Source of the DNA: Mytilus galloprovincialis
Lineage: Eukaryota > Mollusca > Bivalvia > Mytilida > Mytilidae
Assembly (NCBI RefSeq): GCF_965363235.1
Contig: NC_134851.1
Location: forward strand, 40,080,321 to 40,144,320
Length of the DNA stretch: 64,000 nt
Reading direction: 5' to 3'
The stretch's first letter is position 1; each line of letters begins with the position of its first letter. Positions 13,301-51,900 of this stretch are shown one piece after another. Position numbers and translations under genes: made by a program. The notes beneath the pieces are model-generated. The model did not search any database. It was not told the origin of the DNA and saw only the letters and a list, made by a program, of their open reading frames with translations.

Positions 13301-16300
13301 ACCGAGGGAAACGCATTAAATATAAGAGGAGAACAACGACATAACACTAAAATGTAACACATATAGACAAAATCCCACGAGAATAACAAATATAACATAT
13401 ATATATAACATCAAAACCAAATACATGAATTTGGGATAGACAAGTACCGTGACACGTCTTATCGCAATGTGAATTTACACTCAAAAATAAGAGAAAACAA
13501 ACGACACAACGTTATAATGTAATACACACAGAAACGAACTATAATATAACAATGACCATATTCCTGACTTGGTACAGGGCATTTTTAAAGGAAAAAATGG
13601 TGGGTTGAACCTGGTTTTGTGGCATGCCAAACCTCGCACTTTTATGGCCATGTGAAATATAACATCAAAATGACAACACAGGACTACAATATAAATAAAT
13701 TGGAGAACACAATTGACAAAGAATCACACGAACAACAGCCAACAAAAGGCAACAAGTTCAAAATTTTAATACGCCAGAAGTGTATTTTGTCCACACAAGA
13801 CCTATGTGTGACGCACAGATACAAAAGTTTGAAAGCCGAAACGAGTACAAAGTTGAACAGCATCGAGGACCAAAAGATCAAAAAGGTTGTGCCAAAAACG
13901 GCAAGGGTTTTCCGTTAAGTTACCAGAAAATCCCTATAATTTACAGTAATTTATACTTTTGCAAACAGTAAATTTAATAAAATGAATATTCAAAAGATGT
14001 ACATGATAAAGCTGAAGTATTAACTAATACAGGAAACAACTGAAATACATTTACATAACCAGACATTTGAAACACAAAAGTAGACACATCCGAATACGTT
14101 TAAACCTCTACGCCAAGTGACGTCCTATTTGAAACTGAAAAATGACGAAAAAATGACGTCATTAGAATTAGTAAAACAGAGCATCAAAAAATGAAAAATG
14201 ACGAAAAAATGACGTCATTAGAATAAGGATAATTTAATATTATATATTTGAACTAAATACTGATATTGCATTTAATAACAAAGCACATTTTAATTCTTAT
14301 TAATTACATTATAAAAGCAATGTTTGCCTTACTTTGATGAATATAAGTGATAGCGATAGTGGAAAATATTCATGTTTTGCAGCAAACAAAATAGGATTTG
14401 TCGAACAAGAAATCAACCTCAATGTGTTATGTAAGAAACAGTTGGACTAGACATTGATCCTTTATTTTTGTTTTTAGAAAAGGATTTCTTTTATATAATG
14501 TTTGAATCTCAGAGGTGCAGTAATAAATATGAATATATTTCTACTGAAAATTATTGAGAAAAATTGTGTAAAGGAAATGTCGTATATTTTCTTTCAAAAG
14601 TCATATCTTTGATGAAAATTCAGAAAGTTTGAGTTGTTATACATTGTTATATTTATCGATAAATATTGACTCTTTCCAAAATTTTGTTTTATTTATTTGG
14701 AAGCGTTGTAATGAGTTTTATGTTTAAAACAAGAAATCTTTTTATAATAAAGGATTTTTCATTTCAGATATTGTCTACACTGAAAACTAGATAAATTCCT
14801 GGCATTTTCATTTACTTTTTATTTAAAAATGTCAATTGTTTAAAAATTGTAAAATGACTTTGTTATTCAGATCTGGTCAGAATATTTTGCAAGCATTTAA
14901 GCATTTATGATTATAATAGTAACAAATACCTGACATTCGAACAATAGACTACGAAATGTCTGCACAAAAGTGAATTTCAGTGAATAAATCGATTGAAATT
15001 TAATTAGAAACTAATCACGATTTGATGTGACAACCGAAATTGATAAATTTGGTAGATTTAAAGTAGTTCAAAATAATTCGTTTATTGAAACAAATGAACA
15101 CACTATTAATCACCAACAATTTTTAATTATCTATTATTCTTGTTACAATCCTTTTTTCTGTACAATACCAACAATTATCTGTATCAATTAATCAAGTTAT
15201 TTGTTTGCCACTGAACCTTTGTGTCTTTTCTACGTAGCAAATCTTGTTTTCATCATATTCTTAACAAAGTCCATTGATAAAAACAATCCAGATATCATTA
15301 TAATAATATATATCCAAAGTATCAGATTTATCTTTCTTTGGTTAATTTACAAGTTGACTCATTATTTTTATATGTATTATCTTCTTTTCAGATCCACCAT
15401 TTTTTGTAGAGGAACACAAAATCATACAGTTTGGAAAATTAGGAGAACACATTCAGATAAAGGTGATTGCACACACTGTATCAAGCATTGAATGCTGTCA
15501 TATTGAAGGAGAAAACAGAAGACAAATACCACCTGATATTGAAATTATTTCTAAAAACACAACGCATCCTTTCCATGGTACGATTACTATTGTAGAAGAA
15601 CTGGAAATTGCAGTGAGCTTTGCCGAGTTGGAAACAAGTGATTTTCAGAAATATAAAATTACAGTATGCAATCATGATGGGAATAGTACTTGTATTGTGG
15701 AATTAAGACCTATGAATACAGGTAAGCATACACAAATCTGCTGTAATCTTTCAAGATGGATTTGGGTTGCTATAAGTGTTGTCATGCGTCGTTTTGCAAC
15801 ACCATTTTGTCGTTATCAGTTTAATTGTATTGTTGTGGTACCTTTTAAGAAGATAAAATTGTTCGACCATAACATTCATGCTATCCTTTTCTATTTTTAT
15901 TCCAAACCATTACTGCTTGTAGGAAGTCCATCGACCATGAAAGAATAGAGAGAAAAAAATTCCGATTCTTAGTCCACTTATAAAACGTTGTCAAGTTCCT
16001 TAAAAGTTTGTGTTACAACGTTCAAATATAATACATACCATTTATTGTGACAGGGATGTTAGATTGAGGCAAAAGGGCATACCCCTACATATCATAATAA
16101 TAGTTTTTGTCATGAAGATTTTTCGGATATTAAAACATACAAATTGGAAAAATGTAAGATTTACACGTAAGATTCCACCACAGAAATCATACCAAAATAT
16201 CCAATGAAAAGGTAAATATTAAAGAAAAGCACAGTTCTTATTTTTACATACAATGATATATAATTAAGGTCCTAATGTTATTGCTATGATCTCAATATTG

Positions 16301-19300
16301 ATCCTTAAATATTTGTAGAATTACCCCATGTACTAAGTTTGGATGTTATTCTTCTGTCTTCATTGACTACCATACTGCTGGTAGCAGGAATTGTTTTCGG
16401 TAAGTATGAATATGAATGCATCTTTATTCTGACGAGTAAATGTAGGCAAAATAAATTAACTTCAGAAGGACGAAGAATGAATTTTACTTAACGATGTACA
16501 CCTCTGAGGAGCCAAAAATTTCTAGAATTAAACTTGTTTTCTAAACCTGTTTTTTGGGTTTATCAGACTGTAAAAAAAATAATTGGTGACGAAAAAATCA
16601 TATGGTAGTGCACTTCTTTTTTTGCTACGGCCCTTTGAAAGTACCCAATTTTGATGATTTTCCCATTTTTCATCAATGTTTACCTATTTGGGGGCTATAA
16701 TCATGAAAAAAAATTACATTTCCACAATTAAACTTTTTGTCATACCTTCAATAAAGATGAAGGGGACCAATCTGAATAAATTTGAATTAAAAAAAACTAT
16801 AGGTAGGTGTTAATATAAGAAATTTTTATCATATTTTGATGCTTTTTTGTGTCAAATTTTCCATGTTGTCAATTTTGTAAATGTGTGATCTTTCTCCGTT
16901 ATAAGTACAAATTGCATATTTTTTCAACTTCTTTGTTATAAATGATTGAAAAAATACATATCTAAGAAATTTGAAAAGAAAACAAAGATGTGGGATGTAC
17001 ATGTTTCGGGTAAAATCATTTTTTGTATCCCTCACCCATTTTCTTCAAATTTTGGCGAAAAAGATTGACTTGATTGGTAATAAAATTTGAAAAATTGATT
17101 ACTCAAAAACTACTCATTGGAAATTTTTTCACAGAGTTAAGTTTGATTATAACATTTTTTAAATTCATCGATATTTTCAACTTGTATCACATATTTTAGA
17201 AGAAATAATTCCAGAACGAGATTTCAACGAGACTGAAACGTCAGAAGAATACATTCTTAACATTAGTCAAGTTTGTCATGGATTCTAGTTTAAAGAATTC
17301 AATCTGTGGTCGTTTCGAGAGAAAAAAAAACCATCAAAATATGAAGCAGGCCTTTAGTTTCGGTAGTCGATACACAGTGCACGTATGAATCTTTGTTGGT
17401 GACCGTCTTCTAGACTCTACTGAGCTACTATTGATGACACTTCTTAACTGTTAATCGAAATTTGAAATGACATTGAAATTACACTTAGTTTTGAGCTCAC
17501 CTGGTTTATATGTTATTATTGAGCATTTCTGGTTTCCATGTTCTCTTCTGAAATTGATTGGTCGATTTTGCATTGACAGCTCATTATAAATAAGTTTAAA
17601 TTTAGTTTCGATCGAATAATCTACAATACCACCATGATCATAAACCTTTAATTATAAGTGACAATTTTTATCTTCTGAGCTACAGACTGAAATTTTTTAA
17701 AACTTTAAGGAATTGATGATAATATTCAAGAGTGAAATTTGTTTGATTTTTTTTGAATTTTATACTCTGACGGAAACATCAGTTGATATACAAATGCCAT
17801 GTGTAAGAATAAATGATTTTTGAAGCTCTAATTTTTTTCTGTTCTATTACAGCATTGATTAACAGATTAAAGCATAAAAGGTACGAGCCCGTTCTATTCT
17901 CTCTCTGATATTATATTTATATATCAATACTTTATCTCAGAACGTCATCATTTTTTACATTAAGTACTTTCGATAAAAGTACAGTAGTAAGACAGCTTTA
18001 TACATGTCATAATGGATTTAATAACAACCGTTAGAAAATACAAACAAACATAATTTTGAATAATTATATAAAACGGGTTGTAAATATAAGATATGAAAAG
18101 CCCATTTACATTTAGATAACAAGTATAGCTCATAAACAACACAGATCTATCAAAAGGTACACATTTCATTCAAGTTGTAGAACGATTTGTTTTCACATTT
18201 CAAGACCGCGAAAAACACCCATCTACCTAAATATGTGAGTTAAGTTCTTATGTCGATGCTTTAATATCTTAAACAAGTATAGTAATTTTGCATCTACATA
18301 AGAAACAGCAGAATGTTATTATAAGATATAATGTTTCTCTTTCAGAATACAAACAACCGATGATGATATAGAAGTTGTGGAAGATATTATAAAATAATTT
18401 AATGCACTTTTACTAGGAAAAGTACACAAAACTGTTAAAAGTCTTACTGATTTTCATATTTTATAAGTACATCATCAATGCAACATTTACTATATTCACT
18501 ACTGTTAACAATTTAAATGTTATGAAAGAAATGAAGGTATTGTAAAATAAGTTATAGAATCATTGACAAAATGGTTACCAAAATGTAAACGCACAAAAAG
18601 TTCGGAAAATATTTTATAGAGAAAAAACAAATTGATCAAATAATCGCCTTTAAAACACGGGATGCACTAGAAGATGAGGCTGTTTAGGATATTTACCCAA
18701 TCTGACGAAAAGAAGAATTAAAGGTATAGCCCATATCCCAAGTTGTGAAACTTAATCCCTCGCCAGTTAAGTATAGCATCTGATTTGTTACGTCAATCAA
18801 GATTGACAGTAAAAAATTACATTGCCTTTCATGTCCAAGTTAATATAGTAAACTTCTTATTTGGAGAACAATGAACATAAATTGCCAGAAATTATTAGTT
18901 GATAATAATGAGTGTAAACTCTTTGATCTGAAGGTTTTCAATTTGCAGTTTCAGAATTTAATGCATCCTTGGTAATATTTTCAAAAGTGTACACCAAAAC
19001 GTCGTGATTGGTTGAAAATGTCATAAACAATGGAAATTCAACCAATGACTATACGTTATTTTCATTTTGGGATACGAACAATGGAACTACCCATGATTCC
19101 TCTTTATATTCTGAATCGTCTAATTAACACTTTCATATACTACAGATAGTACAGAAGCTGTGGATAATGTACTTTACCAGTCTAATGCATTTAGATACAC
19201 TGAAGCCACAAAACGAAGTACTCTGTCAAAAAGTGCTACAGTTTCAAACAGCCAAAGAAGTAGTCCAACTAATGAAGGTACGTGTTTTCACCATTCTAGG

Positions 19301-20898
19301 AGATTAAGGAACCATTTTATCTTGGCATCAAGTTAAGCTCGTGCATGTTATGTCAGGTACTAATTTTTTTTTTTTTTTTTTAACAAAATGACGTTTGCCG
19401 TTCAGACACGGTTTTTGTGATATTGAATGATTTAACTGTAAATTTCAGGAAAGATTTTTTAAATCTACTTATGATCTTTTATATTGAAGTGACATGTTGA
19501 ACTACACATATGTGTTATATACATTTCAATTAAAAAATATATTCTTAATAAGTTTATTTTTCTTCAGAAAACCAAAGACCGCAAAGGTTCAGCAACAGGT
19601 TCCAGGATTCGGTAAGTTATGATCTTTCTTGCACTCTAAAATGTCTACGTGTTTCAATTACTAACTGCTAATGTGTTTTCAATTTTCATTTATTTTAAAA
19701 TATGCAAAAGTAAGTAGTCTGTAATTAGTGTTTATGGTTCAGAAAGGCAAAATTTAGAAAATCTTCAAAGTACGTGTTTTGATAAGTTATTTTTAAATCT
19801 TAAGATTACAATATATGCAATGAAACAAAATCACATTTAATAAAAAAAAAAATAGAGTATAGACACATTATCAAAAACAACTGCTTTACCTCAAACAATA
19901 ATATATTATTTTAATTGAATGAATGGTATTTGTGAAGCAGTAATATTGCATTTTTTTCAATTTTGCTGCAAGCTAAAAGTTTTTTTTTATATAAATAAGG
20001 CCGGTAGTTTTCTCGTTTGAATTGTTTTACATTGTCTTATCGGGGCCTTTTATAGCTGACTATGCGGTATGGGCTTTGCTCATTGTTGAAGGCCGTACGA
20101 TGGCCTATAGTTGTCTGTGTCATTTTGGTCTCTTGTGGACAGTTGTCTCATTGACAATCATGCCACATCTTCTTTTTTATATTGTAATTATCAATCACTT
20201 TCAAACTATTGAATCAAGTATTGAGACCGAAAGCAAAATTAAAATATCTTGAATCGTCGTTTTCTGATACATTGTACTTAAAAAATATGATGTTGTCAAA
20301 ATCAGAGGGAATTACTGTTTTTTTATAAGTTAAAATCACCATGTATTATCGAAGATACGAAATCGGCACCAAAACAAAAAAATAGAACTGTCTGTCTGGT
20401 AGTAGTTTTAAGACAAATGTAAATCGGCTTTTCCAAGAAAGAATGTTGTTTGCTGAAATTATGTAGAGTTTAAATAAAAGCAATTCAAGACCTAAGTGAA
20501 AAAACTACCATACACTTGGAAGAAATTGAACAAATATGGCCACAAATAAGCTCTATGTCAGAGTATTCAACCAAATTAAACCATATTTATTCAAAAAGAA
20601 AATCATTTTATCAGTAAATTACATATCCACAATAAAATGCTGTTTTCATTTTTGTTTTATTTTTTAGAGAAGACAGTTGAATTATGCAGATATAACATTC
20701 AGTTCTACTTTACCCGGCAATGAAATGCGTATCAGAGGACTCGGAAACAAAACGGAGTATGCTGATGTTGATTTAACAAATGGTCAGACCGGTGTCCTCG
20801 ATACACTAAATGAATTAAACACTGACGACGAAGATTTCGTTGAAATTGAGGATCTTGATATATTTTCACATAGAAAGAATGAAATTGATACTGTTTAA
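10395..20898 (+). CDS. IgSF receptor gene B with ITIM/ITSM tail; Ig2 exon interrupted
   Basis: Multi-exon cell-surface receptor candidate. Exons: 10395..10452 leader (ATG, hydrophobic QLLYILMMTL, ends phase 1); 11597..11878 Ig1 (282 nt; Cys in LECTL, Trp in LIWIRNG, Cys in FSCEV); 13086..13222 and 14319..14430, the two halves of Ig2, separated by a repeat insertion; 15392..15721 Ig4-type domain (330 nt); 16319..16399 transmembrane helix (VILLSSLTTILLVAGIVF); 17853..17880 basic juxtamembrane exon; 19146..19277 tail exon with DNVLYQ; 19568..19611; and 20668..20898, the last exon with ITIM LNYADI and ITSM TEYADV. No Ig3 exon was found, so B has one Ig domain fewer than C and D. Ig2 cannot be read through the insertion, and no phase-correct exon joining 17880 (phase 2) to 19146 (phase 1) was established. 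B may therefore be decaying, or may use the short tail at 18346. Its tail exons are fully open and conserved with C. Confidence 0.68.
12480..12890. repeat. Mytilid repeat (TCCTGACTTGGTACAGGCAT...ATGGTGGATTAAACCT)
   Basis: Related copies are at 22487..22760, 24000..24200, 39945..40085 (inverted) and 50340..50650, and in the gene B Ig2 insertion at 13223. The first part also matches CGGAAAGTCCATAATCACAT, seen inverted near 40050. Confidence 0.65.
13223..14318. mobile_element. About 1.1-kb repeat insertion inside the Ig2 exon of gene B
   Basis: The Ig2 reading frame runs from 13086 to the codons for KVSVE, then meets TAA in repeat sequence beginning ATAAAGGCAACAGTAGTATACC. It resumes at 14319 (NVCLTLMNIS...SCFAANKIG) and ends at a normal donor at 14430. 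The two halves total 249 nt against 264 in the paralogues. The start of the insert matches repeats at 22487 and 50340. It also holds the common mussel motif TCCTGACTTGGTACAG with ATGGTGGGTTGAACCTGG, and a 56-bp tandem duplication. ATAAARGCAA is present at both ends and might be a target-site trace. No in-frame splice pair that would remove it was found. Confidence 0.7.
14137..14225. repeat. 56-bp tandem duplication with CRE-like TGACGTCA
   Basis: The string GAAAAATGACGAAAAAATG, followed by ACGTCATTAGAAT, occurs at 14137 and again at 14193, a 56-bp period. Each copy holds the palindrome TGACGTCA, the consensus CREB/ATF site. It lies inside the insertion that splits the gene B Ig2 exon. Confidence 0.8.
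14431..15391 (+). other. Gene B intron where an Ig3 exon would be expected; none seen
   Basis: Genes A, C and D have a 306-nt Ig3 exon with the NIPDQ and YQDxGIY motifs. No trace was found here. The Ig2 exon ends in phase 1 and the Ig4 exon starts in phase 1, so loss of Ig3 keeps the frame. Confidence 0.6.
16400..17852. other. Gene B intron between TM and juxtamembrane exons, no exon seen
   Basis: A low-complexity, repeat-like block lies at about 16490..17170 (CGATGTACACCTCTGAGGAG and homopolymer-rich sequence). The rest is AT-rich without features. Confidence 0.4.
18346..18397 (+). other. Alternative short-tail terminal exon of gene B (candidate)
   Basis: An acceptor (tttctctttcag) opens a reading frame in phase 2. 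This matches the phase of the 17880 donor, giving IQTTDDDIEVVEDIIK and then TAA at 18395..18397. Spliced here, B would end in a short acidic tail without tyrosines and without the ITIM/ITSM. An optional 30-nt exon (18205..18234, donor GTGAGT) keeps the same phase and could lie between them. It resembles the 32-nt exon at 34062..34093 of gene C, but the 2-nt length difference would break the frame into the long tail. Splicing is inferred from sites only. Confidence 0.4.
20010..20185. repeat. Mytilid SINE-like repeat (TATAGCTGACTATGCGGTATGGG...GGCAATCATACCACATCTTC)
   Basis: The sequence runs GGGGCCTTTTATAGCTGACT, GTTGAAGGCCGTACGATGGC, and CATGCCACATCTTCTTTTTT. Whole or partial copies are at 24290..24470, 28045..28140, 31070..31205, 31660..31765, 36955..37080, 47750..47905 and 58225..58375, and inverted at 59575..59705. 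It accounts for the small open frames at these places. Confidence 0.7.
20668..20898 (+). other. ITIM/ITSM-bearing last exon of gene B
   Basis: 76 codons plus stop, acceptor ttttttag, phase 0. It carries LNYADI (fits [ILVS]xYxx[ILV], the ITIM consensus) and TEYADV (fits TxYxx[VI], the ITSM consensus), with tyrosines 25 residues apart. These are followed by an acidic patch, TDDEDFVEIEDL. The gene C last exon matches in order, spacing and the EDFVEI block, though much of the sequence between has changed. Phosphotyrosines in such motifs recruit SH2-domain phosphatases such as SHP-1/SHP-2 in vertebrates; the same role here is inferred. Confidence 0.8.
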
Positions 20899-31931: not shown

Positions 31932-32159
31932 TTAATGTTCTTTTCTTTTGTCAACAAAATTCTTTAGACCCTGAATTTCAACAAAGTCTTCTTCTTCCTC
32001 ATCACTACTCGTTACATTACGGGAATCGACGAGACTTGTGGCTCCTCCTGAAACAGTCACATCGGTGTATACTGTTCTGTTCTCAATACCTATGATATGC
32101 ACAACATCGTGTGTCGAAGTTGGAGGGAAAATAACGTCTGCATAATATAACTGACCTGT
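31932..32159 (-). other. ITIM/ITSM-bearing last exon of gene C
   Basis: 75 codons plus stop, acceptor gtgtttcag, phase 0. QLYYADVIF gives an ITIM (L-x-Y-x-x-V) and RTVYTDVTV gives an ITSM (T-x-Y-x-x-V), with tyrosines 25 residues apart. The acidic stretch DEEEEDFVEI follows. From family knowledge, human PD-1 (Tyr223/Tyr248) and BTLA (Tyr257/Tyr282) have the same motif order and the same 25-residue spacing, which suits the tandem SH2 domains of SHP phosphatases. Confidence 0.85.
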
Positions 32160-35100
32160 CTGAAACACAAATGACACCTTATACTATAAAAAAAAAGATG
32201 AAAGTATGGTTTCCAGTGAGACAAACTAAACTTTGCAGATACGAAAAGTGTACGAAAATGTCAAAATCTCAACATGTTTTTGCACGTAATGTAAATTTGA
32301 AACACTTTCGAAAACAGAGAAAATAATAACATAGACATACAAAGATCAACATTCAATAATCACCCCGTGTCTTTTTTTATCCCTTTTCAGCATTTGATAT
32401 TGTTATTGAAGGATCCCTTCAGAGGCATGTGACGGAAAACAGCAACCTATATGCAAAATATTTTGTATATTTATTTACTGATTGGTATGATTTGTGGACT
32501 GCAAAATGTACAGTACATGTATGTCAAGCCAGTTTTTAAAATTCTTCAGCCCCTCAGATTTAGTATCGATCCACAAATTATACTTGAGTAACACGGCAAA
32601 TGCTTGAGGTGAAGGGATTTGTGCCTTTTGAGTATTGAAGCTTGCATTATTCAGTAATTTATTTTTTATTTTTGTAAGAATTTGGTTCCGAGCGTTCCTA
32701 GCCTCCTGGTTAAAGCATTTTTTTTGACAAGCGCAGTGCCTGACATAACTAAAGATTTTACGTTGAGTGGAGTTTTTACTCTATCCACAATTTAATAATA
32801 AGACATTGAATATGGTGCTTACCATATTTATTTTAAATTCACACCTAGTGTGTGAACATTTTCCACAATCGAGGTTGAAATATTTTCAGTAATTTTGTTT
32901 TTAAATATAACTTTCTTTGCGGAAAAGGTCTTATTAATGAGGGCCATATAGTGACCTGTATTTGATTATATCAAATGTCTTTATCTTACTTTAGGGAATA
33001 TGTGTTGCCCATAAATGAAGGCAGCACGGTGACTTGCATACGTAGTTGATTACAACTCTGTGCTTAGGTATTTTTGGTTGTCGTATTGGCAGTCATGTCA
33101 TAACTTTACAAACGTTTTTTAATTCTTTTTATTCAGTAAAATGGAATGATAATAATAATGATTATGATAAAAACGATAAAATACAATGCTTAGTACTCGA
33201 ATATATCTTACCAATGGACCCGAATTCTGTTCTCGTATATATGAGCTGCGGTTATAATCTGAAAAAAATTAAATGATTTGTGCTGTAATGCAGAACGCTT
33301 TCTCATATTGAGTAACGTTGTCAAATTCAAATATTTCCATGTGCAAATTGACGAATTGTACAACCTGAAAAATGATCAATTAAGCAGTTTACATTAATAA
33401 ATATTCAATAATGAATATGAAAGACTAGTTATTTGTCTAGAATTTCCTTACCAAAAACTTCTACACTAGTTTGAACTGGTGTTGGTCGAACATCTACCGA
33501 CTGAGTTGCAGTTTGATACACAATATTTTCAACAGGCACTGGTTGTCCTAGAACAAGAATGAAAACATTACATTAGTTGCGATACAGATCTATTGAAAGT
33601 TGAAATGCAAAATAGAAACATAACAAAACATAGCAAAAAAGGAGGCTGATTGTTAGCCCGTTTGAATTCTTCTTTGTAGCATCATTTAAAGAGATTTCGC
33701 ATCAATATTGCTTTATTAGTAACCCCTCCTTTTTCGTATTTGTGCTATGAAATTCAGTGCAAAATTTTCATACTTATATCAGAAATGCACGGATAACAAC
33801 ATATACCGATTGTTAACATAATATCGCGGAGTTCGCCATTTACATGTAGTACTTGTACCAACAAATTCAAAGAAACTGTTTCTATCAATAATATAAATTA
33901 ACTCATCATAGATACCAGTATTGAAATTTTATATTCTTATAACATATGTTTGTTTTAAAGGTATACTCGACTGGCGAATGAAATAAAATATAACAGTTAT
34001 TCGCCGCGGTTTTGTGGTACATACTCGGGTTCACATGACATACTTTTTTCAGCTCACTCACTGTCAGGAATGTGTGTTTCTTGAATATTCTTGCTGGCAT
34101 TTGGTATAGATCAAAGTGTAAAAGAACACATAAGGACTAAGCTGAGACACACTTGCTATAGAAACAAATTAAATCAAAAAGTTAATATATTTTGAAATAA
34201 TTCATCTAGAGTAATTGTGAGCTATATTGGTGTCCTTTTGTTTTCAAAAATTATTTGGATTTTTTTATTCTCTAAATGACAAAAGTTTTCCTTCTATTGA
34301 CTCTAACTCTGAGATATTCTCTGATATTCTGAAAAAAGTATAAATCAAAACCAACATGACGAATTGTACACCAACAATATTATTTTTCAAAAGAACACTT
34401 TGAAGGATTTAAACAATACATAAAATGAGACAGAGGAGCAAAAATTAAAAAAAAAATATGGGAGTTGTAAAAAAAAAAAAGGAAAAAGAATATGTTTTTC
34501 CAGAAAGGGTGCAATAAAATGCTATAGATTGAAAAAAGCTAATTATATTGACAAGGTTTTTACCACTTTACCTTCTGTTTCTCTTTCTTCCCAGGAAAAC
34601 TGTAATAAAATATTAAAGTGCATTTTAAATCTGCATGGACCAAACCTACATCTATGGATTTCTTTTCTAACAATAGTACTGACAGTGGCGTAAAACAACA
34701 ATAAATCAAACAATCAATATAAATATGTATATCAGTAGGTGTGTAAACGCAAGTTGAAAATTAAGGCTTAAAAAATAGACGATGACGAAACATTTATTGT
34801 TGCGCAGGCAATATTTTGAAATACGTACTTAAATGTCAACAGTCCACCAGTTTGAATATTGATCAAGTGTGAGAGTCTGGACAGAGTACATGTACATATA
34901 ATAGAGGTAACAAAATATGCAAAATGGAATACAATTGACAAAAAAAAAAAGGATTAGAAAAAAGTGTCAAAAAGAAATGAATGACCCTATTCAGACACTT
35001 TATTCTTATTCATTTAAAAAAAATCAAATTAGAAATCATATATTCTTCGATTCTTGCAATTTATTCACTTTTAAATTTTACATGTAGATAAGGCAAAGTT

Positions 35101-38100
35101 TCTCTCCCTATTAAATTAACCAAATGTCTCCAACCCTTATCCCATAGGTTTTATATCACAGGGCCTAACTATTGTTTGTTTAATGCTAAATAAACTCATC
35201 ATAGATACCAGGACTAAATTTTGTATATACGCCAGACGAGCGTTTCGTCTACAAAAGACTCAGTAGTGACGCTTGAATCCAAAAAAGTTAAAAAAAATAA
35301 ATAAAAAAAAGCCAAATAAAGCACGAAGTTGCAGAGCATTGAAATTCAAAATTCCTAAAAGTGTTGCCAAATATAGCTAGGGTAATCTATGCCTGACGTA
35401 GAATTAATTATCGCCCTTAACATGTTGTAATATTTGCCACTGGACATTCACCAACCAAAAAATCAATCAAACATAATCGGATGATTGGGTCTACAGAAGT
35501 AGTATCGACCCTCTGCTAGTAGTTGACAATAATACTGTGTAATGCGTCCGATCCGCTATACACAAAGCTGTAAAAATAGATCTGAGAACAAAGATGTAAA
35601 AAGTAATCTGAGAAGAACTCTGTTATTCTAATGAATGTTACCTGCTGCTCCTGTAATTGGGACACACATTACCACAAGTATTGCCAAGATAAGTACCGCA
35701 ATTTTTGTTTCACCAGTTTTCTTCTCTTCTAAAGATATAAAATAAATGATGTAACAATACTCTATAAAATAGTTACTGTAAGACATTTATTCAATAATAT
35801 ATCGACTAAAGCAATATGGTTAATACTAGTTGTACTGTTTCTTTTTGAAGCTTTTAGGTTTATCTTCCTATTCGCAATGACACAAACACTTAACAGTTGG
35901 ATTTTTAAATATGTCTGTGGTACGTTGCTGATATTAAATAAAATGTATTCTGCAATGAAACATTTTTTGGACGGACGAAAAATTCGTCATATTCAAAACA
36001 TATGTCAAAGTATTTTTGTTGGTTTTATAGGCGATCCGCGTATAAACAATGTTGATCTTCTTAGATATCAAAGAATACCTTTTCAGAAAAAAATCAGAAC
36101 AAAATATCAGTGTTATATAATAGTGCAAGATAAAAACAATTAGTGTACTACGTTATTGAAAAATAAATATTTTATTCTGAATCTCTACTAAGCAGCGAAG
36201 CATTAGTGTTCTTTTTCTTTATTTTTCTTGCATACCTATTTGTTTTATGCTGGTTAATTTTATAATTCTATAAACGTAAACAATGAAAGAAATATGTATG
36301 TACATGTATATGCACGGCTTTAAATTAAATATTAAAACAAATTAGTTCTTTTTTATAAATGAAGCACATGAAGCTTACCTATATCGATTGGGCCTGATGT
36401 TATATTTACTACAAAACTGCTATTGCTGTAACCATTACACAGTGTTACAGTATAGTCCTGACGATTACTCTTATCAGATATGTTGAAGCTCAAAACGATT
36501 TCCATGGTTTCGACTGATATTTCAGTTCCATGGAAAACCATAGTACTGTTAATATGTGTAATCTGTATGGAAGCTGTTATATCCTTATTTCCACTCTTAA
36601 CATTATTAGATTCTATCTCTGAGGTACTGTATACAATGAATTTCAAAATAAATGTTTTCCCTGGTTGACTATACTGCTCATGTTCAATTTTCGTCATAAA
36701 TATGGGCGGTCCTTTGAAAAAAACGTTATTTTGTCATTTGGATAATTAATGAAAAACGTAAAATATAGAACTCGCAATATAACCTTTTATACAGAATATG
36801 CAATCTATGGTCTTAACTGCAGATATTGGCCAACTTTGGTCAAACTGAATAGTTCTAATTAAACATGTCCTGCTTTCCCACCAAACTAGTAGTTCCATCT
36901 ATAAGTAAAAGTATTGACGAGTTTGTTGTTTAAGTGCTTGAATTTGTTTTGGGATTTTTATAGCGTAATATACAGTATGTGTTTTGCCCATTGTTGAAGG
37001 TCGTATGGTAATTTATTGTTACTTGTATCTACGCAAGTTAGTCTTTGATGAATGTTGTCCCTTTGGCAATCCTTGAACAAATTATGAACATTTTGAAGGG
37101 ATGGGGACGAAGGGGTTAGTGTTCATCATTTGGAGAGCTCTGAATGCATGGCCTCCTTTAGTTGTATTTGTAGATATCAAAATGAATGTCAGTGTCATGA
37201 CATATCTGCTAGAAATACTAACGAACAGAGTTTGCAAACTCTGCTTTGGCTAAAAAAGTGTGTGTGTTTTTTTGTGAGTGTTCTATCTCACCTATCTATT
37301 TCGTTTCAATCTATAAAGAATCAGATGGTTTATAAACATATCGATGCTCTTTGTGAATACATCTTACCATTTGACATAACGAAGATCTTTCCGGTCTGAA
37401 AACTATTTCCAAAACTATCAACTACTCTATTTGACGCCGTACATGAATATATACCGTTGTCCTGGTACCTTTCAACCTTATTTGCAATTGGCGGTAAAGT
37501 TACTTTGCCGTCAGTTGAAGGATTTAAGTATCTAATGTGTTCGCCAAAGAACGAAAGATGATGCCATAGACCATATGAATATGTTGCAGGTACCCCGTAT
37601 GCAAGACACTGTAGGGTTCGTGACAAATCAGTTTCTGTAAAATGTATGCGTTGATCAGGAATATTCGGAGGATCTAAAAGAATGAATTACAAACAAACTC
37701 GTCAAGTTTATAGATATCAAAATAAGTATTCCATTAAGGGTTGGTGTATTTCTAAAACAAAATTTTGTTTGATATCACGTTGTTTTGCGATGTAATACGT
37801 AGAACTTTATTCAGAGAGATGCTCTCTGATATTGCAATAGCTTTCATAACTATTTATGGATTCCGAATGGTTCGTTCCTAGTGATTGTTTTTAATTTTAA
37901 TTTTTAAGAATGAATTTTGGTAAAATTTCACATCGACAGGGTAGATGCAAAGCTAAACCTGTTAAACCTTTTTGTTTTGACATTCACCGGAAAAGCTTGG
38001 TCGTTTGTGTGCTTTATCGGTTGTATTGATACCGTCTTGAAACAAAAGGAAATATGGAATTTAAAAATTCCGAACTTTAACAAAACTACATGTAACTTTG

Positions 38101-40468
38101 AATTCAGATATTGTTTTTGGGGCAAATACCAGTCATTAGAAGAAAGCTCCATTGCCTTGCGACTTAGAATCTACAGTTGGCTCGACATGTTTTTGTTTGC
38201 AAATCGCAATCCTCAACATGTTCAACAGTGATTGTTTTTAAAAAAGACACATTTAACAATATCGATTATACAAAATTTGAAACTTTAAACTTACATAAAA
38301 CTGTAATAATAACCTCATCATGTATTGTTCCAATCTCGTTTTCAGCAAAACATGAGTAACTACCGCTATCTTCACGACTGATATTGATAATTTTATGACA
38401 TAAGACGTTTGTATCATACTTTGAAGACAGTAATCTACGTCCCATGTTCCACCATAGTTCTAGTGTTGGCGGTCGACTCTCGGAGCTGCAGCAGAGTGTT
38501 ACAGATTGTCCCTCAATAACACTGTTTGGTGTAAAGTTCATAGACAAATACGGTTTATCTACAAAAATAATTAACATATGAATGGCATTGATTAATCGAT
38601 CTTCGGCAATTTTTTAAGGGAGTTCCAAACATATGTTCCTATTCAAATGCAATGATAGTTAAAAAAATGGAGGGTACAAATCAAGTAGAACCCCTACCCT
38701 TGATCTGCGACTGCCCAATAAGATTTCTATAGATGGTTATGTCTATGCTTTACTAAATCAAATGTTTCGAACAATTACATATCGGTTGATTCACAACAGC
38801 ACACCATTTAAAGAGAGAAGGGCGATAGAAATGGGTCAGTGCTCGACGAAAAACGGCGAAAAGACAAACAAAAGCCCACAACATACTAATCACTGAAACT
38901 AAAAGTCTAGATACACGAACTTCACCTTAAACCGGGAATGAACCAATCATGTGCTCCGTAATGATCAGTTGTTCCTTGTCTACTTTTTTTTTGCTTAATG
39001 TCATGCAACCCTTATGATTAACAGACATACATGTAAAAGACAAAATTCAAATAAAAAATAAAAATCTGGATGACAAACGTATATACAAGAATTAATCTGA
39101 AGTTGAACTCACAACTGATATCAAGCGTAGCACTGGTCTTCCTCCTTATACGAACAGCCAAATTATACATGTCACACGAAAACGTTGAACCGTGATCTTC
39201 TTTCCTTGGAATAAGAGAATATACTAGAGAACCACGCCTTGACTCTTTTACGATCAGTCCATCTCTTTTCAGAACTGTTCTGGTATATGCGAACGGACAC
39301 TGCAAATGAAGAGGCTTGTTAACTATTCCCGGAATAATTGATGTCGTTCCCGTTATGATATTAGAACGGTATGGTGAACCTGGATGTACACAAGCTATAA
39401 AAATGAAAATTAAATTAAACGACTATGTAATGAGAAGTTACATAAATTAGAAATTACTCATTCACACACTCAGGCAAATTTCGCAAAGGTCAATCGCACA
39501 AGAACCTGACGTGAAAATCAGCTCAAACGAGCTTATACGTGAATTTCATGTGAACTAGATATCCACGAGTTTCACGGGAACTTGTTGAAAAGTTGTATGA
39601 ATTTTACCTAAACTTCAACAACAAATGGTATTGTTCATCATTTTTTATTTGAATTTGAAAATTAATATGTTATTTGAATAACGTTTTTTTGAAAATATGT
39701 GATTTTCATACGAGATTCATGTGCAACTCGCATGAAATCGTTTCCCCTGATATTCACTCGCAAGCTCGTTTAAGTTGCAATTCATGTAATTTCAAGTTTC
39801 CGGTATACGTACTTTTTTTATTATTGTAATGTAAGAAGTTGAAAGGTTCTGTAGGGTCTCTAGGAGTCAAATTAAACAAACATCTCGCCAAACAATCAAT
39901 ATGTGAGTGTCAAAGAACTCAGACTCACGCTATGTCATGATTTTTCCTAAAATAATGATTACATTTTCAGTAAATTTAGTCAGGAATATGACAGTTCTTG
40001 TCCATTCGTTTTTTATGTGTTTTTGTCATTTGATTTTGCCATGTGATTATGGACTTTCCGATTAGATTTTGACTGAGTTCAGTTGTTATATATCAAGAAA
40101 TTGCATGTTTTACAATGTAACTTCTGCGTATTTGCCAATTCTTGGGGTCTGGAGTGGATGGAACAAGGGTATCTCAACCTTTGTGCCTTTTTTATTTATA
40201 ATTAAGCCATCATTTTATATCCTTTGTTTTTTATTACCCTGATATTTTGTTTCCCTTTTTCTAAATTATGTTGCCCTCAATTCTTATATTCATTTTATTC
40301 TGTATTGTCTATTCTGTAAACACAATTTAGACCATCGATATAGCCAAAGAACCGATGAAAATCAGAGAAAGAGAAAAATGTTGTATATGTAAAATAAATA
40401 CCTGTGTTATACAAAATTAATATCAGAACCTGCCAGCTATGTCGTATAAAATTGTCAATTTTCTTCAT
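31932..40468 (-). CDS. IgSF receptor gene C: four Ig domains, TM helix, ITIM and ITSM
   Basis: Complete 11-exon model, 1770 nt, 589 residues, every junction GT..AG and in phase. Exons: 40402..40468 leader; 39113..39394 Ig1; 38295..38558 Ig2; 37368..37673 Ig3; 36379..36711 Ig4-type; 35642..35728 TM; 34572..34599 basic stop-transfer (FLGRKRNR); 34062..34093; 33452..33547 (ENIVYQ); 33212..33258; 31932..32159 last. Approximate residues: signal peptide 1-22, Ig domains 23-417, helix 427-446 (IAVLILAILVVMC, uncharged), tail 447-589. ITIM LYYADV is centred on Tyr520 and ITSM TVYTDV on Tyr545; an acidic SSDEEEEDFVEI block follows. Ig1 keeps both cysteines but has Leu at the core Trp position. Likely a plasma-membrane recognition receptor signalling through SH2 phosphatases (inferred). 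The 32-nt exon at 34062 is the weakest call; gene D has an exon of the same length and phase at that place. An ATTAAA poly(A) signal variant is at 31845..31850. Confidence 0.85.
35203..35345. repeat. Mytilid repeat (CTCATCATAGATACCAGG...GCCAGACGAGCGTTTCGTC)
   Basis: Same family as 30564, inside a gene C intron between the TM exon and the juxtamembrane exon. A half-copy (ACTCATCATAGATACCAGTA) is at 33900. Confidence 0.75.
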
Positions 40469-45967: not shown

Positions 45968-48900
45968 CCTCTGCAAACTCTGTTATCCCTTCAGATGCGC
46001 TGAAAAAAAAGGAAACTTGATGTCACGTATTTTTGTATTCACACTGAACAAATATTGAAATGGTTTTTATTTTTCACTTGTATTTATGTATTACTTCTTA
46101 GGTTCTGACAATGAGTAGTTGTATGGACTTGCAGTTCAAATCTTGGTTTTATTGATTTAAATATACAAAGTGTAAAAGTATTTTCGAATTGCATTTCGGA
46201 AGTTTAAATGCAAGATAAACAAAGGAAAATATTTAGCATACCTGCTAGCATTGCGACTCGTGTTTCTTTTTCTAGTCAGAAAAACTATAATGAAAAAGAA
46301 TATATCAAAACACTCATAGAAATAATTCTTAATCATCGACAAAATGTCATAAAGTTTGATAATACTACTGAATAACATTATTTAGTTACGATTACAGGTT
46401 CTATTGCGATTTGTATGAACCAAGTATAGGAATTACAGAAATAATATTTTGTCTGTATGCAGCAAGGCTAAATTAATTTTGTGGTATTCAGACAAACACA
46501 ACAAATGCAAATAAGGTAAAAAAAAACCTGGAACATTATGTGCAAAATCAAAACGACCCAAACTGATCACAAGTATTAAGCAGATAATTCCTCATATTTT
46601 AACAGGTCGGGAACACTACCTTATATGGATATGCATGAATTACATTTAGTTATTTTTTTTACATGTGACGCAATATATGTTTACCTGGGCTTTTGACCAA
46701 TCCAATAAATGAGTAACAATGCATGATTTACTACTACATATTTAAACAAGTAAACAAGTGTTATTTACTGAAATGCAACACATTTTTTCATGCATTTCGG
46801 GATTCAAAATTTAGCTCAGTTTTTACTTTTTGTATATACATTTATAGTTCGCGTTATAAAGTAATTTGTCTATGCTCAGATTAACGAAGAGTTGTTTCTA
46901 TGCAAAAAATCGAGTGTTTTAATTAGCCGATATATAGCCATTAATATGATTGATGATGACACGGAGATCTTCGGTATTCGTGCACAACACAGCAAAGAAA
47001 CAACAGTGAAGAACACAATTATCCATAAGAAAAACTAACTAGTGTAAAGCTAGCCGGTTATAACAGTCGGTGATAATATACACGAGGACAGCAGCTTTCG
47101 TATAGATAGTTAAAAAATGAGGGATCCTTAATTTTTGTGTTCTTAGAAAAGGTGAAGACTTTATAGAGTGTGTCAAATATCTGTTGGGGTCATTAAAATT
47201 TCACAGTTTAAAAAAATAATGATATCGTACCTTCTTTTATGATTAAAAAGTAATAAATCGAGGAAAAGTATTATTTTTTAAGGAGTTGGTCCGGTAAGGG
47301 CCGATTTTGGCCTCAAATTTTAAGTTCATCTGATGAAAGATTTTGGATATTTTTTAAACACTTAAGTGTCTTTTTTAATTCATTCAATTAGTGTATGTAA
47401 AAGATTTTTACTGATTTAGTCATTAAAAAGGCTCCGAATAAAGCTTAAATATGAAAAATCTATCAAATATGCCAAAAAACGTCACTTTTCAGATGGTTTT
47501 GTCAAAATTGAAAGTGGCCGCATCCGTGTTCATCCTCAACCTTTATATATGTTATGTAATATCATCAAATACAACTTACATTTCAATGTTATGAATGAAC
47601 ACGAATGCGGCCACTTTCATTTAAGACGGAAACCATCTACAATTTAACTAATTTTCACAATTTTGTAAAACTGCTATACTTTGGGGTCAAAAAGGGGTCT
47701 TACTGAACCGACTCCTTTGTCATGAAGAATCAATAACGTATAAAACATATAATCCGGGGATTTATAGCCGATTATACGCTATGGGTTCTTCTCATTGTTG
47801 AAATCATTACGGTTGCCTATCATTACTTAAGTCCCCTTCATTTGAACTTTAGTTGGATAGTTGTCCCACTGGCAATCATATCACATCTCCTAATTTTGTA
47901 TACAAACATCTTTCGTGTACAAACATGCATAAAGCTTATATCATCAATCATATTCCATCTGAACTGCAAAAGACATTAATTTTGTTTTTTATTCTTATCT
48001 GACAATGTTAACAAAATCTATAAGTATTGACTTTTGACATATTTCAGTATTTTTTTACTTTTTTTTCTCTTCCAAACTGTTTTCATTGTTCTGACGGTTA
48101 TAAGGCAATCAGTAGTACTTTCATTTAGCTTTAGTATTTTCAAAGTTCCTTTTTATCAAATGGAGATAATGATTTATTATTTTATTTTTAACAGACTCGG
48201 ACATTTGCCAACCTTAATATAATCATTTATGATGTTATCCATTTGTATGTGCGACAAGGGCGTGAACTTTGACATATTTTGCGAAAATTGTGGCGTTGGA
48301 TCTAAACCTATTACATTACTTTTATTTATAGTTTACTTGTCAGCGTTGAATCAATGATTGCTTACTTAAAAAGGTGGTGTCCTGGATGGATATCGCATTT
48401 GGCACTCATACCTCATCTTTTTGTTTTTATATACAAAGCAAGTTTAAGAAAACCGTATTGGGCAATATAACACCCACTATGATCCAGAGGATTTATATGA
48501 TTGAAAATACTGCACATAAGTCAATAGACAGCAGCCGATCGATAAAATTCCTCTAAAATATATTTTGGGATAAAATCAACAACAGACGGACTTTATCGTT
48601 GGTCAAAACTATACGAAATGTGTTGAGCTATTTGTCGTCCCCCTTTTATAAGACTTTTTTTGTAGCATACCGAATATCATGGTGTCCAATAGTTCAAGTC
48701 TTAATAAAAAGTATATACATCCAGTTCAGATAGTAGTGTTTCTGTGCTAGTTCTTCGTGTTTTTCGAAGTACAAATGTTTTTGAAATGTCGATATACAGG
48801 TTTAAATAAGCTCAAAAATTTGTCATACTGGGCATTAGTCACTTCATATCAAATTGTATTGTTCACGCCGTGAAATTAATGCACAGATAAAATGCATAAC

Positions 48901-51900
48901 AATGAAAAAAAACCTGTTAAACTAAATTTAAAAGGCGAAACAGAAAGTCAAATTGTGTAGCCAGTAAAAGCTGCTTTTTTAATCTGAGCATGCAAATTGA
49001 AGGTTATGTTATATATTTTACGTTAAAAATAATTGCAGAACAAAAACATGTATAATGAGAGTCCCTTACACTTTATTAGTCGACAGTTTTCCCACTAATT
49101 CCACGTGTTTTCAAGTGGTAAGAAACTCGTTGTAATCCACAATACATTGTAGTTCATTGAATTGAGTGGTCAGTTTTTCAAGGCCATATTGACCTTGAGT
49201 TATGGAAATTACTATGCAGATATATTATGACGTCAGGAAATCTAGAGTTTTCGACCTGTTTAACGAATAATCGGTTATGTAGATATGCAAAACAAAATTA
49301 GACCTAGATTTTGGATTTTGTGTTATGACTTTTATGAGATTTTGTAAAAGCAAGGAAAATTTTGATACTGTCAGGAATCAGTGTAACAAACCCCAAACAC
49401 ATTGTTCAACTACAGTAGTCGACAGCATCATTTAAAGGATGTCATAGAATCTCACTCATAGGGTAAAAAATCCTACTCAGATAATGTTTTTTTACAGATA
49501 TCAGCAAGCTCATTCGTTTTAGAATATAAAGAGTGTGAACAAAATAATACTTACTTGTTATCCCTGAAATGACCACACACAACACCAGTATAACCGAGAT
49601 GACAATTACAGCAATCTTAGTACGTTTTGACTTCATTTCATCTAAAATGTTGTGACAGCTTGAGATACTATGTTTTTTTATTTCGTAAAGGATATTGTTC
49701 GTTGCATATTCATTAGAAAGAACGATACCAGTTTCACTAATGATATACATTTTGTAATACTGATGAAGTGGGCATGTTGTTTGAATTACTATATTTCAAT
49801 TAAAAAATAATGTTGCTGTTGAAGGTAATGAATAAAACATAAAAAAATATTGCCAAAAAATGTGGGGTTGGTTTGGACATTCAAACACGATAAAAAAATG
49901 ATTTTTTGGTTTGCTTGGTAGATTTTATTATAATAGTTCAATACTTCAAACCGTAACAGACTTTCTGTAAGTTTTTTCAACCCGAAAAAGGTTAATAGAT
50001 ATATTGATATGCATATGCATAAGGTTGATTCCCATCTGATGCATACGTAGCTCTTGTCAAACATTACATAAATCATTGTAAATCATTCGGTAAAACAATT
50101 TTTCTGCAACCAGAATATTACTTTTTCAAAATTACCTCTCCATACGCCGCTAAGTTTATTGCAATCGTGGAAGCCATTTTAGAGATGACGCGATGATGAT
50201 TTAGCTTTTGAAAAACTGATAAATGTATCCATGTTTCACCATTACTACTATCCTTACGTGACAGTTGTATTTAAACAGACTATGTATCGTCTAGGTATAA
50301 AGCATCATTGACTGTATTGTTATACATTTTAAAGGCCATAGATAAAGGCAAAAGTTGTATACCACTGTCATAAATCGATTGAGAGAAAACAAATCGGGGT
50401 TATAAAATTAAACTGAAGGAAACACTTCAAATATAAAATAAATTCAGCGAAAAAACCTAAACACTGAAGTGAACAAAAAAACAAACGACAAAGCAACACA
50501 CACAGAAATGAACTACCATTTTCCTGACTTGGTATTGGACATTTTAAGAAAAAATGGAGGGTTGAACCTGATTTTGTTGCTAGCCAAACCTCGCAATTTT
50601 ATGGCAATGTAAAATATAACACTAATATGACACAATTACATGACAGTAATACAGTTCAAATAAATTCATAAACATTCAGGACAGATAAATACACAAATAA
50701 ACAATGCAATAGTTCATTTTGACATGTTAACCACACAATAAAAACGAACACGTAAAACAACATAGAATAGCAGGACATAAAGACAGCACAACAGAACCAC
50801 GAACTTACTTTCATACGACTGGACCAACGCCACAAAACAGATGTAAACAGTTTGTCATGTATACCTTTTATAACAAAGAGTTCCATGAAGTTTTGTTTGA
50901 TTTCAGTTTGATATCAGCTTTAATATGAAACAGAATTATTGACAACCACCTGCATTGTAAATCATCAAATTGTGTGTAAACTCTAAATTAAGACCAGCAG
51001 TGGATAACATTATTGACCTATATTTTTTTGTTGTGAATTGTTGTCTCCTTGTCAATCATATAACACATTATCTTTTTTTCATATTTTTTTTTTTCATTAA
51101 ATCGGAACTCAGAATTATTTTACAGCTTTTTGTTTATTTTGTTTTGAAAAGAAAATAATCGTGTAAAATAAAATCTTACCTACATCAATTACCGTTGGTG
51201 TTAACTCTATAACGAAACTGCTATTGCCGTAAGCATTACACAGGGTTATTGTATAGACCTGCTGGTCACTTTCATTAAATATGTTGAAGCTCGAAACAAC
51301 TTTAATTGAGCTAACAGATATTTCAACACCATGAAAAATCCTAGTTCTATTCACAGATGTCATCTGTGCTGAGGTTTTTATTTCTGTTTTATTGTTATCA
51401 ACGTTAAAACATTCTAAATCAGATGAACTGTAGACACTGAATTTCAGATTTAATATTTTCGCTCGATTAACATACTGTACATGTTCATTTTTCTCCAATA
51501 ACACGGGCGGTCCTTTAAAATAATGTAATATAATAATTGTTTTTTAGATAATTGCAACGAAAATTAAAAAAGAGTATTTCCTAGCTGTCACCTTAATGTG
51601 AGCTGTTATTTTCATGTATTATATATGTGTCAATGAAGTTTAAACCATTGTATTTATTCATATTAGACCTTTCCAACATCTCTCGACACCGACTAACAGT
51701 TTACAGGTAAAATGGATGGGTCGTCTCAAAGACAAAAAAACATCATGAATTTCACTGCGTAACATATTGGACAGGCGCTTATATACTGTTTTGATTATAT
51801 AGCTTCAGAATATATATCAACCAAATAAATAAATAAATATATATCTCTGTCGTATAGTCTTCTTATTTGTATGTATTTACACGACATTTCATGTTCAATT

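What the first reader, a model, noticed from the sequence alone, without database searches (positions are those of the whole stretch)
31932..32159. Mollusc IgSF receptor tail with paired ITIM and ITSM at PD-1-like spacing
The last exon of gene C encodes LYYADV (ITIM) and TVYTDV (ITSM), tyrosines 25 residues apart, on a single-pass protein with a signal peptide and four Ig domains. Human PD-1 (223/248) and BTLA (257/282) have the same motif order and spacing. The full model is in frame over 11 exons. This points to an inhibitory receptor system in a bivalve, arisen by shared ancestry or convergence.
Basis: partly seen in the sequence, partly recalled or inferred. Interest (0 to 1): 0.95.

Follow-up and report, generated by a model that had tools for sequence, protein, structure and literature searches.

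The report
Shellfish inhibitory-type immunoglobulin receptor gene cluster
A mollusc-like genome stretch carries a cluster of cell-surface receptor genes, two of which end in the same pair of tyrosine switches that vertebrate immune 'brake' receptors use, but brake-type receptors were already reported in oysters, so this looks like a well-preserved new example rather than a new kind.

Summary
On the MINUS strand, 32159-31932 is an open last exon with LYYADV and TVYTDV, tyrosines 25 apart. Gene C rebuilds as 9 GT/AG exons, 569 aa, in frame. An 11-exon in-frame route also exists, but its extra exon has weak splice sites, no better than chance. A second tail exon (gene B, plus strand, 20668-20898) keeps both motifs and the spacing at 38% identity. 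These were the only two ITIM-ITSM pairs in six frames. The exon evolves like coding DNA (dN/dS 0.31), and both ITIMs read LxYAD[VI]xF. Best reading: a type I Ig receptor that recruits an SHP2-type phosphatase. The PD-1 label fails: multi-Ig ectodomain, pY+1 Ala rather than Gly; BTLA and SIRPalpha have the same or similar spacing. Inhibitory Ig-superfamily receptors are already reported in oyster, and ITIM-bearing Ig receptors in Botryllus. Further leads, all unproven: a possible tyrosine-free short tail, and conserved NxxY and LIR-like motifs. There is no transcript or binding evidence.

The parts
31932..32159 (-). Gene C last exon: ITIM LYYADV(IF), ITSM TVYTDV (Y-Y 25), acidic stretch with EDFVEI, stop
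33212..33258 (-). Gene C cytoplasmic exon 2 (phase 1 in, 0 out)
   Evidence: GT/AG sites and frame
33452..33547 (-). Gene C cytoplasmic exon 1, VENIVY (NxxY)
   Evidence: match to gene B is by phase, place and motif; DNA similarity is not above shuffles (73 of 300 as good)
33859..33881 (-). Weak candidate linker exon (NSFFEFV) that would give an 11-exon in-frame gene C
   Evidence: acceptor 5.2, donor 3.3; 23.5% of random introns do as well
34265..34328 (-). Gene C candidate alternative terminal exon X (RISENISELESIEGKLLSFRE*), no tyrosine
   Evidence: acceptor score 11.4 and frame from jm; 243 nt after jm (D 242, B 465); DNA similarity to D and B not above shuffles (226 and 214 of 300 as good)
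34572..34599 (-). Gene C juxtamembrane (jm) exon (FLGRKRNR), phase 1 to 2
   Evidence: 80% identical to gene D over 35 nt, 0 of 300 shuffles as good; gene B counterpart not supported by DNA (72 of 300)
35642..35728 (-). Gene C transmembrane exon
36379..36711 (-). Gene C ectodomain exon D4 (Ig fold not shown; single Cys)
37368..37673 (-). Gene C Ig exon D3 (sub-threshold Ig hits)
38295..38558 (-). Gene C Ig exon D2
39113..39394 (-). Gene C Ig-like exon D1
40402..40468 (-). Gene C signal-peptide exon (MKKIDNFIRHSWQVLILILYNT)
   Evidence: 380 alignment columns around it are 65% identical to gene D, E 3e-20; not returned by the hydrophobicity scan
20668..20898 (+). Gene B last exon: ITIM LNYADI(TF), ITSM TEYADV (Y-Y 25), EDFVEI
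10395..19611 (+). Gene B upstream exons: SP candidate 10395-10452, D1 11597-11878, D2 broken by about 1.1 kb (13086-13210 / 14310-14430), D4 15392-15721, TM 16319-16399, jm candidate 17853-17880, X candidate 18346-18397, cyt1 19146-19277, cyt2 19568-19611
   Evidence: jm acceptor score only 2.6
45968..59253 (-). Gene D: SP 59253-59196, D1 58860-58579, D2 58087-57824, D3 53672-53367, D4 51512-51180, TM 49641-49555, jm 46284-46242, X candidate 45999-45968; no long tail found
1693..3035 (-). Gene A: D2 3035-2772 and D3 1998-1693, runs off the window start

Best explanation
Gene C encodes a type I membrane receptor of the immunoglobulin superfamily: signal peptide, four Ig-type exons, one membrane span and a 123-residue tail. 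When a Src-type kinase phosphorylates both tail tyrosines, the ITIM (LYYADVIF) and the ITSM-like site (TVYTDV) together hold the two SH2 domains of an SHP2-type phosphatase, which then damps activating signals in the cell that bears the receptor, most likely a haemocyte. Shown here: the exon, the frame, the motif pair, its conservation in one paralogue and purifying selection. Inferred: transcription, phosphorylation, phosphatase recruitment, cell type and inhibitory outcome.
For: 9 in-frame GT/AG exons. Both tyrosines and the spacing of 25 are kept in gene B at 38% tail identity. Tail dN/dS 0.31 at dS 1.45. Codon positions 1, 2 and 3 are identical in 47, 48 and 36 of 73 codons; the two best DNA matches around the exon (E 2.5e-4 and 0.003) lie in it or across its acceptor, the others have E 0.037 or more. 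ITIM and ITSM stretches hold 10 of 15 identical columns; with EDFVEI, added after seeing the alignment, 16 of 22 against 12 of 51 elsewhere. Both ITIMs have Ala at pY+1 and Phe at pY+5. PMC8631942 (passages): Ala at pY+1 in BTLA, SIRPalpha and other ITIMs; bivalent parallel SHP1/SHP2 binding. PMC12151841 (passages): Phe at pY+5 aids both SHP2 SH2 domains. Shuffled tails give a pair at exactly 25 in 0.0002 (C) and 0.00005 (B) of 20000 shuffles each.
Against: No transcript, protein or binding data. Only two tails, both from one window. In the 9-exon model the long tail lacks the usual basic stop-transfer residues; these lie in the jm exon, which reaches the tail in frame only through a weak candidate exon. 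The signal peptide core is short. D4 is not shown to be an Ig fold. The ITSM label comes from vertebrates and has no tested meaning here. Ectodomain matches are generic Ig proteins, neural ones first.
Confidence: 0.62

Rival explanations
1. The receptor is an adhesion or neural-type Ig protein whose tail tyrosines dock SH2 or PTB adaptors for trafficking or growth signalling; the ITIM/ITSM look is incidental and the output is not immune inhibition.
For: Best sequence matches of the ectodomain among solved structures are contactins, titin, MAG, neurofascin and neurotrimin; immune receptors (Fc receptor-like 5, CD22, Siglec-8, CEACAM6, CD276) come lower in the 60 shown of 192. D1 fold matches include SYG-2, Rst and ICAM-5, also LAIR1 and Siglec-10 and, at rank 2, a bacterial FN3-like module. 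SHP2-type phosphatases also act in non-immune pathways (recalled).
Against: Both tails keep a full LxYAD[VI]xF plus TxY[TA]DV pair at 25. The genes are a local cluster with fast-changing ectodomains (C/D dN/dS 0.80 in D2, 0.62 in D4, 0.36 in D1, 0.31 in D3), which is more usual for immune receptors (general knowledge).
Confidence: 0.22
2. The genes' main product is a tyrosine-free short-tail receptor (TM-jm-X), and the ITIM tail is a minor or decaying alternative.
For: The jm exon matches between C and D (0 of 300 shuffles as good). jm-to-X distance is 243 nt in C and 242 in D (465 in B). The short tails of B and C have no tyrosine. Gene D has no detectable long tail.
Against: X is not similar above shuffles in DNA (226 and 214 of 300); gene B's jm acceptor scores only 2.6. 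A weak in-frame route from jm to the long tail exists in both B and C, so jm need not lead to X. The long-tail exon is under constraint between B and C.
Confidence: 0.1
3. Chance motif pair in an unexpressed exon or pseudogene.
For: Pairs at 16-36 residues arise 0.37 times per 64 kb by chance. Gene B has an Ig exon broken by about 1.1 kb.
Against: Same pair and spacing in two paralogues, purifying selection, intact gene C frame.
Confidence: 0.04

Closest known systems
Oyster CgIgIT / CgIgIT2 and CgSiglec-1 (Crassostrea gigas)
   Same: Bivalve Ig-superfamily receptors reported as inhibitory (paper titles in the reference lists and review text seen).
   Different: The review describes CgIgIT2 with five Ig domains and an ITAM, while the title it cites calls it inhibitory; CgSiglec-1 has two I-set domains. 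The passages do not say whether these oyster proteins carry ITIMs.
BTLA and PD-1 (human)
   Same: ITIM then ITSM, tyrosines 25 apart (257/282; 223/248, start of an abstract in the listing).
   Different: Multi-Ig ectodomain here; pY+1 Ala as in BTLA, not Gly as in human PD-1.
SIRPalpha
   Same: ITIM tyrosines 429 and 453, 24 apart; Ala at pY+1. Its motif letters resemble YAD[LIV] ... TEYxx[IV] (recalled, from no call).
   Different: SIRPalpha has four ITIM tyrosines; here there are two such sites.
Botryllus FcoR and Hydractinia Alr-locus genes
   Same: Invertebrate receptor families in clusters with ITIM or related tyrosine motifs; FcoR are Ig-superfamily, and in oligomorphic FcoR loci splicing can swap tail motifs (PMC12065747 passages).
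   Different: FcoR carry a sushi domain and can carry hemITAMs; role is allorecognition.

Membership tests
PD-1 (CD28/PD-1 family) | Single V-type Ig ectodomain (recalled) | tested here: not met
   Four ectodomain exons in gene C; no PD-1 chain named in the 60 of 192 and 50 of 1647 matches shown
PD-1 (CD28/PD-1 family) | ITIM with Gly at pY+1 (bony vertebrate consensus) | tested here: not met
   Ala at pY+1 in both tails; literature. A passage cut short mentions an alanine in the ITIM of cartilaginous-fish PD-1
PD-1 (CD28/PD-1 family) | ITIM then ITSM with tyrosines 25 apart | tested here: met
   shared with BTLA, so not diagnostic
ITIM-bearing inhibitory Ig receptor (functional class) | Signal peptide, Ig ectodomain, one membrane span, cytoplasmic ITIM in one open model | tested here: met
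   model only, no transcript, short signal-peptide core
ITIM-bearing inhibitory Ig receptor (functional class) | Recruits SHP1/SHP2-type phosphatase and inhibits | not testable with these tools
   needs peptide binding and cell assays
SIRP family | V-set D1 followed by C1-set domains (recalled) | tested here: inconclusive
   D1 gives generic matches, none with E <= 0.001. A V-set hit passes its cut-off in gene D (29.4 against 26) but lies in D2, and is below it in gene C (20.5)
Oyster CgIgIT / CgSiglec-1 | Sequence homology | not testable with these tools
   sequences not held; the iScience paper is not held
Paired activating/inhibitory receptors | Activating partner with a basic residue in the membrane span (recalled) | tested here: not met
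   by eye, no Lys or Arg within the hydrophobic spans of B, C or D (sequences printed); gene A's span was not found, the gene runs off the window

The most novel reading that the evidence does not exclude
A bivalve cluster of checkpoint-like receptors whose output is set by splicing: a tyrosine-free short tail, or a long tail that links an SHP2-docking ITIM/ITSM pair to a PTB-type NxxY site and a conserved Atg8/LC3-binding-like EDFVEI motif, so that one receptor could brake signalling and steer engulfed cargo.
Probability: 0.08. Interest if true: 0.8.

Novelty: new member of a known kind. Interest (0 to 1): 0.5.

Why it matters
If the tail binds the species' own SHP2-type phosphatase, it gives a compact, testable case that two-site tandem-SH2 docking at about 25 residues is used by inhibitory receptors outside vertebrates. 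The local set of copies (B and C with the long tail, D apparently without) would let one ask how inhibitory and non-inhibitory versions arise inside one cluster.

Tried and rejected
11-exon model: first I held that no GT/AG route through the jm exon reaches the tail in frame. A recheck showed that this was wrong: two weak routes exist in gene C (33881-33859, 33881-33853) and three in gene B (best 17941-17963), at scores that 23.5% and 22% of 200 random introns reach or pass. The longer candidate 33881-33844 was not returned; it makes a stop at its join. I therefore lowered the short-tail rival from 0.12 to 0.10 and the novel case from 0.10 to 0.08. The splice scores come from a matrix built on the window's own exons (21 acceptors, 21 donors), so they are relative.

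A tail for gene D: tblastn, a two-sequence profile and motif scans found none. A possible cyt1 remnant near 45481-45431 (NILY) is not supported: cyt1 of C or B against that region is no better than shuffles (185 and 84 of 300). The split of gene B's D2 was not resolved; one search shows repeats in the inserted stretch, and joining D1 directly to D4 keeps the frame.

DNA similarity was not above shuffles for jm C in B (72 of 300), X C in D (226), X C in B (214) and cyt1 C in B (73), and in these the best local match was not at the proposed exon. Relatives in viral contigs: 5 pattern matches, 0 confirmed. No mollusc genome or transcript collection was available. Literature: judged from the listings, none of the 3 and 5 papers is about ITIM Ig receptors in Mytilus; of these I opened only PMC5877582 (passages). 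Not run: genome contigs, search_dna_similar, Rfam, tRNA and promoter scans, RNA models, phrogs, padloc, ncbifam.

Full report
What is there. The window is AT-rich DNA with intron-bearing genes. No whole genome is held for it, so 'bivalve, probably mussel' rests on gene content and my recall of mussel repeats, not on a test. The named stretch, read on the minus strand, is an open exon ending in a stop with LYYADV and TVYTDV, tyrosines 25 apart. Upstream on the same strand I built gene C from nine exons with GT/AG sites and matching phases: signal peptide, D1, D2, D3, D4, transmembrane, two short cytoplasmic exons and the tail, 569 residues.

Paralogues. tblastn within the window finds four related genes. 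A (minus) runs off the window start. B (plus) ends in its own tail exon at 20668-20898. C is the gene of the finding. D (minus) has signal peptide, four ectodomain exons and membrane span, but no tail that tblastn, a profile or motif scans could find. C and D are 65% identical over 380 alignment columns around the signal-peptide exon. No D3 was found in gene B, and its D2 is split by about 1.1 kb that I could not explain as a clean intron.

Is the motif pair more than chance? Two pairs exist in six frames of the window, both at exactly 25 and both in these two last exons. Markov sequences of the same length give 0.37 pairs on average, and 2 of 60 had at least two, so the pair by itself is weak evidence. 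The stronger evidence is homology. B and C tails are 38% identical with dN/dS 0.31 at dS 1.45. Codon positions 1, 2 and 3 are identical in 47, 48 and 36 of 73 codons, and the two best DNA matches (E 2.5e-4 and 0.003) lie at the EDFVEI end and at the ITIM end, the latter including the acceptor; the other matches of that call have E 0.037 or more. Identical columns gather in the motifs: 10 of 15 in ITIM plus ITSM, and 16 of 22 with EDFVEI, a stretch added after looking, against 12 of 51 elsewhere.

How it most likely works. Both ITIMs read LxYAD[VI]xF. PMC8631942 (passages) reports bivalent, parallel binding of SHP1 and SHP2 to ITIM and ITSM of PD-1 and BTLA, and Ala at pY+1 in BTLA, SIRPalpha and others. 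PMC12151841 (passages) reports that Phe at pY+5 contributes to binding by both SHP2 SH2 domains. The simplest reading is an SHP2-type docking tail. Kinase, phosphatase, cell type and effect are inferred. The ITSM name implies SAP-type adaptors in vertebrates (recalled); here it should be read only as a second SH2 site.

Ectodomain. In the fused gene C protein several Ig models pass their cut-offs, best over D2. Alone, gene C's D3 is sub-threshold and D1 and D4 have no Ig hit. AlphaFold2 on three D1 sequences gives a beta sandwich with mean pLDDT 82.8; its best solved-structure matches include SYG-2, a bacterial FN3-like module, LAIR1, Rst, ICAM-5, Siglec-10 and MAG, none with E at or below 0.001. 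D4 is not resolved (pLDDT 42.4); gene C's D4 has one cysteine where gene D's has two. So 'four Ig domains' is likely but shown for only part.

Between membrane and tail. Between the membrane exon and cyt1 of gene C lie a 28-nt basic jm exon (phase 1 to 2) and, 243 nt on, a candidate exon X. The C/D jm match is real (0 of 300 shuffles as good). Read through jm and X, genes B and C end in a short tail with no tyrosine. X is supported by its acceptor score (11.4 in C, 11.9 in D, 6.5 in B) and by the 243 and 242 nt spacing in C and D (465 in B), but not by DNA similarity, and gene B's jm acceptor scores only 2.6. A 23-nt route of the same phase exists in gene B (17941-17963), but random introns offer routes this good in 23.5% and 22% of cases. 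So both the 11-exon long form and the short form are hypotheses, and long and short tails are not shown to exclude each other.

Other shared tail features. Both long tails carry V[ED]N[IV][VL]Y at the same distance from the membrane exon, and EDFVEI near the end. EDFVEI fits the xLIR pattern printed in PMC5119064 (passages), a paper that also warns of many false positives. Shuffled tails contain an xLIR in 0.24 (C) and 0.15 (B) of cases, so only its conservation makes it worth noting.

Comparison with the known. It looks like an ITIM-bearing inhibitory Ig receptor. It is not a PD-1: multi-Ig ectodomain, Ala at pY+1. Inhibitory Ig-superfamily receptors in oyster are already reported: CgIgIT and CgIgIT2 (cited titles and text in the review PMC11999971, passages) and CgSiglec-1 (review PMC5877582, passages). 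That first review ascribes an ITAM to CgIgIT2 while the cited title calls it inhibitory, and the passages do not state ITIMs for the oyster proteins; I could not read the originals. Botryllus FcoR carry ITIMs or hemITAMs, and such motifs are reported for Hydractinia Alr-locus genes (PMC12065747, passages). I therefore file it as a new member of a known kind.

Noticed in passing
window 27393-29806 (-): A C1q-domain frame (Pfam C1q E 5.7e-9 for a 130-residue piece), with a 273-codon open frame upstream that looks coiled-coil by eye, lies between genes B and C.
   Followed up: partly
window 62438-64000 (-): A 521-codon open frame running off the window end reads like a LINE-type reverse transcriptase (by eye).
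   Followed up: no
window 13210-14310 (+): About 1.1 kb splits gene B's D2 Ig exon; the stretch holds a 45-nt direct repeat, each copy with an AATGACGTCATT palindrome. It may be a mobile element insertion that damages gene B.
   Followed up: partly
window 31974-31991 (-) and the gene B tail: The acidic EDFVEI stretch is among the most conserved parts of the tail and has no assigned function; it fits the xLIR pattern.
   Followed up: partly
window 49730-49650 (-) and 45481-45431 (-): Two short NILY-containing frames in gene D resemble each other (tblastn E 0.08); probably chance.
   Followed up: partly
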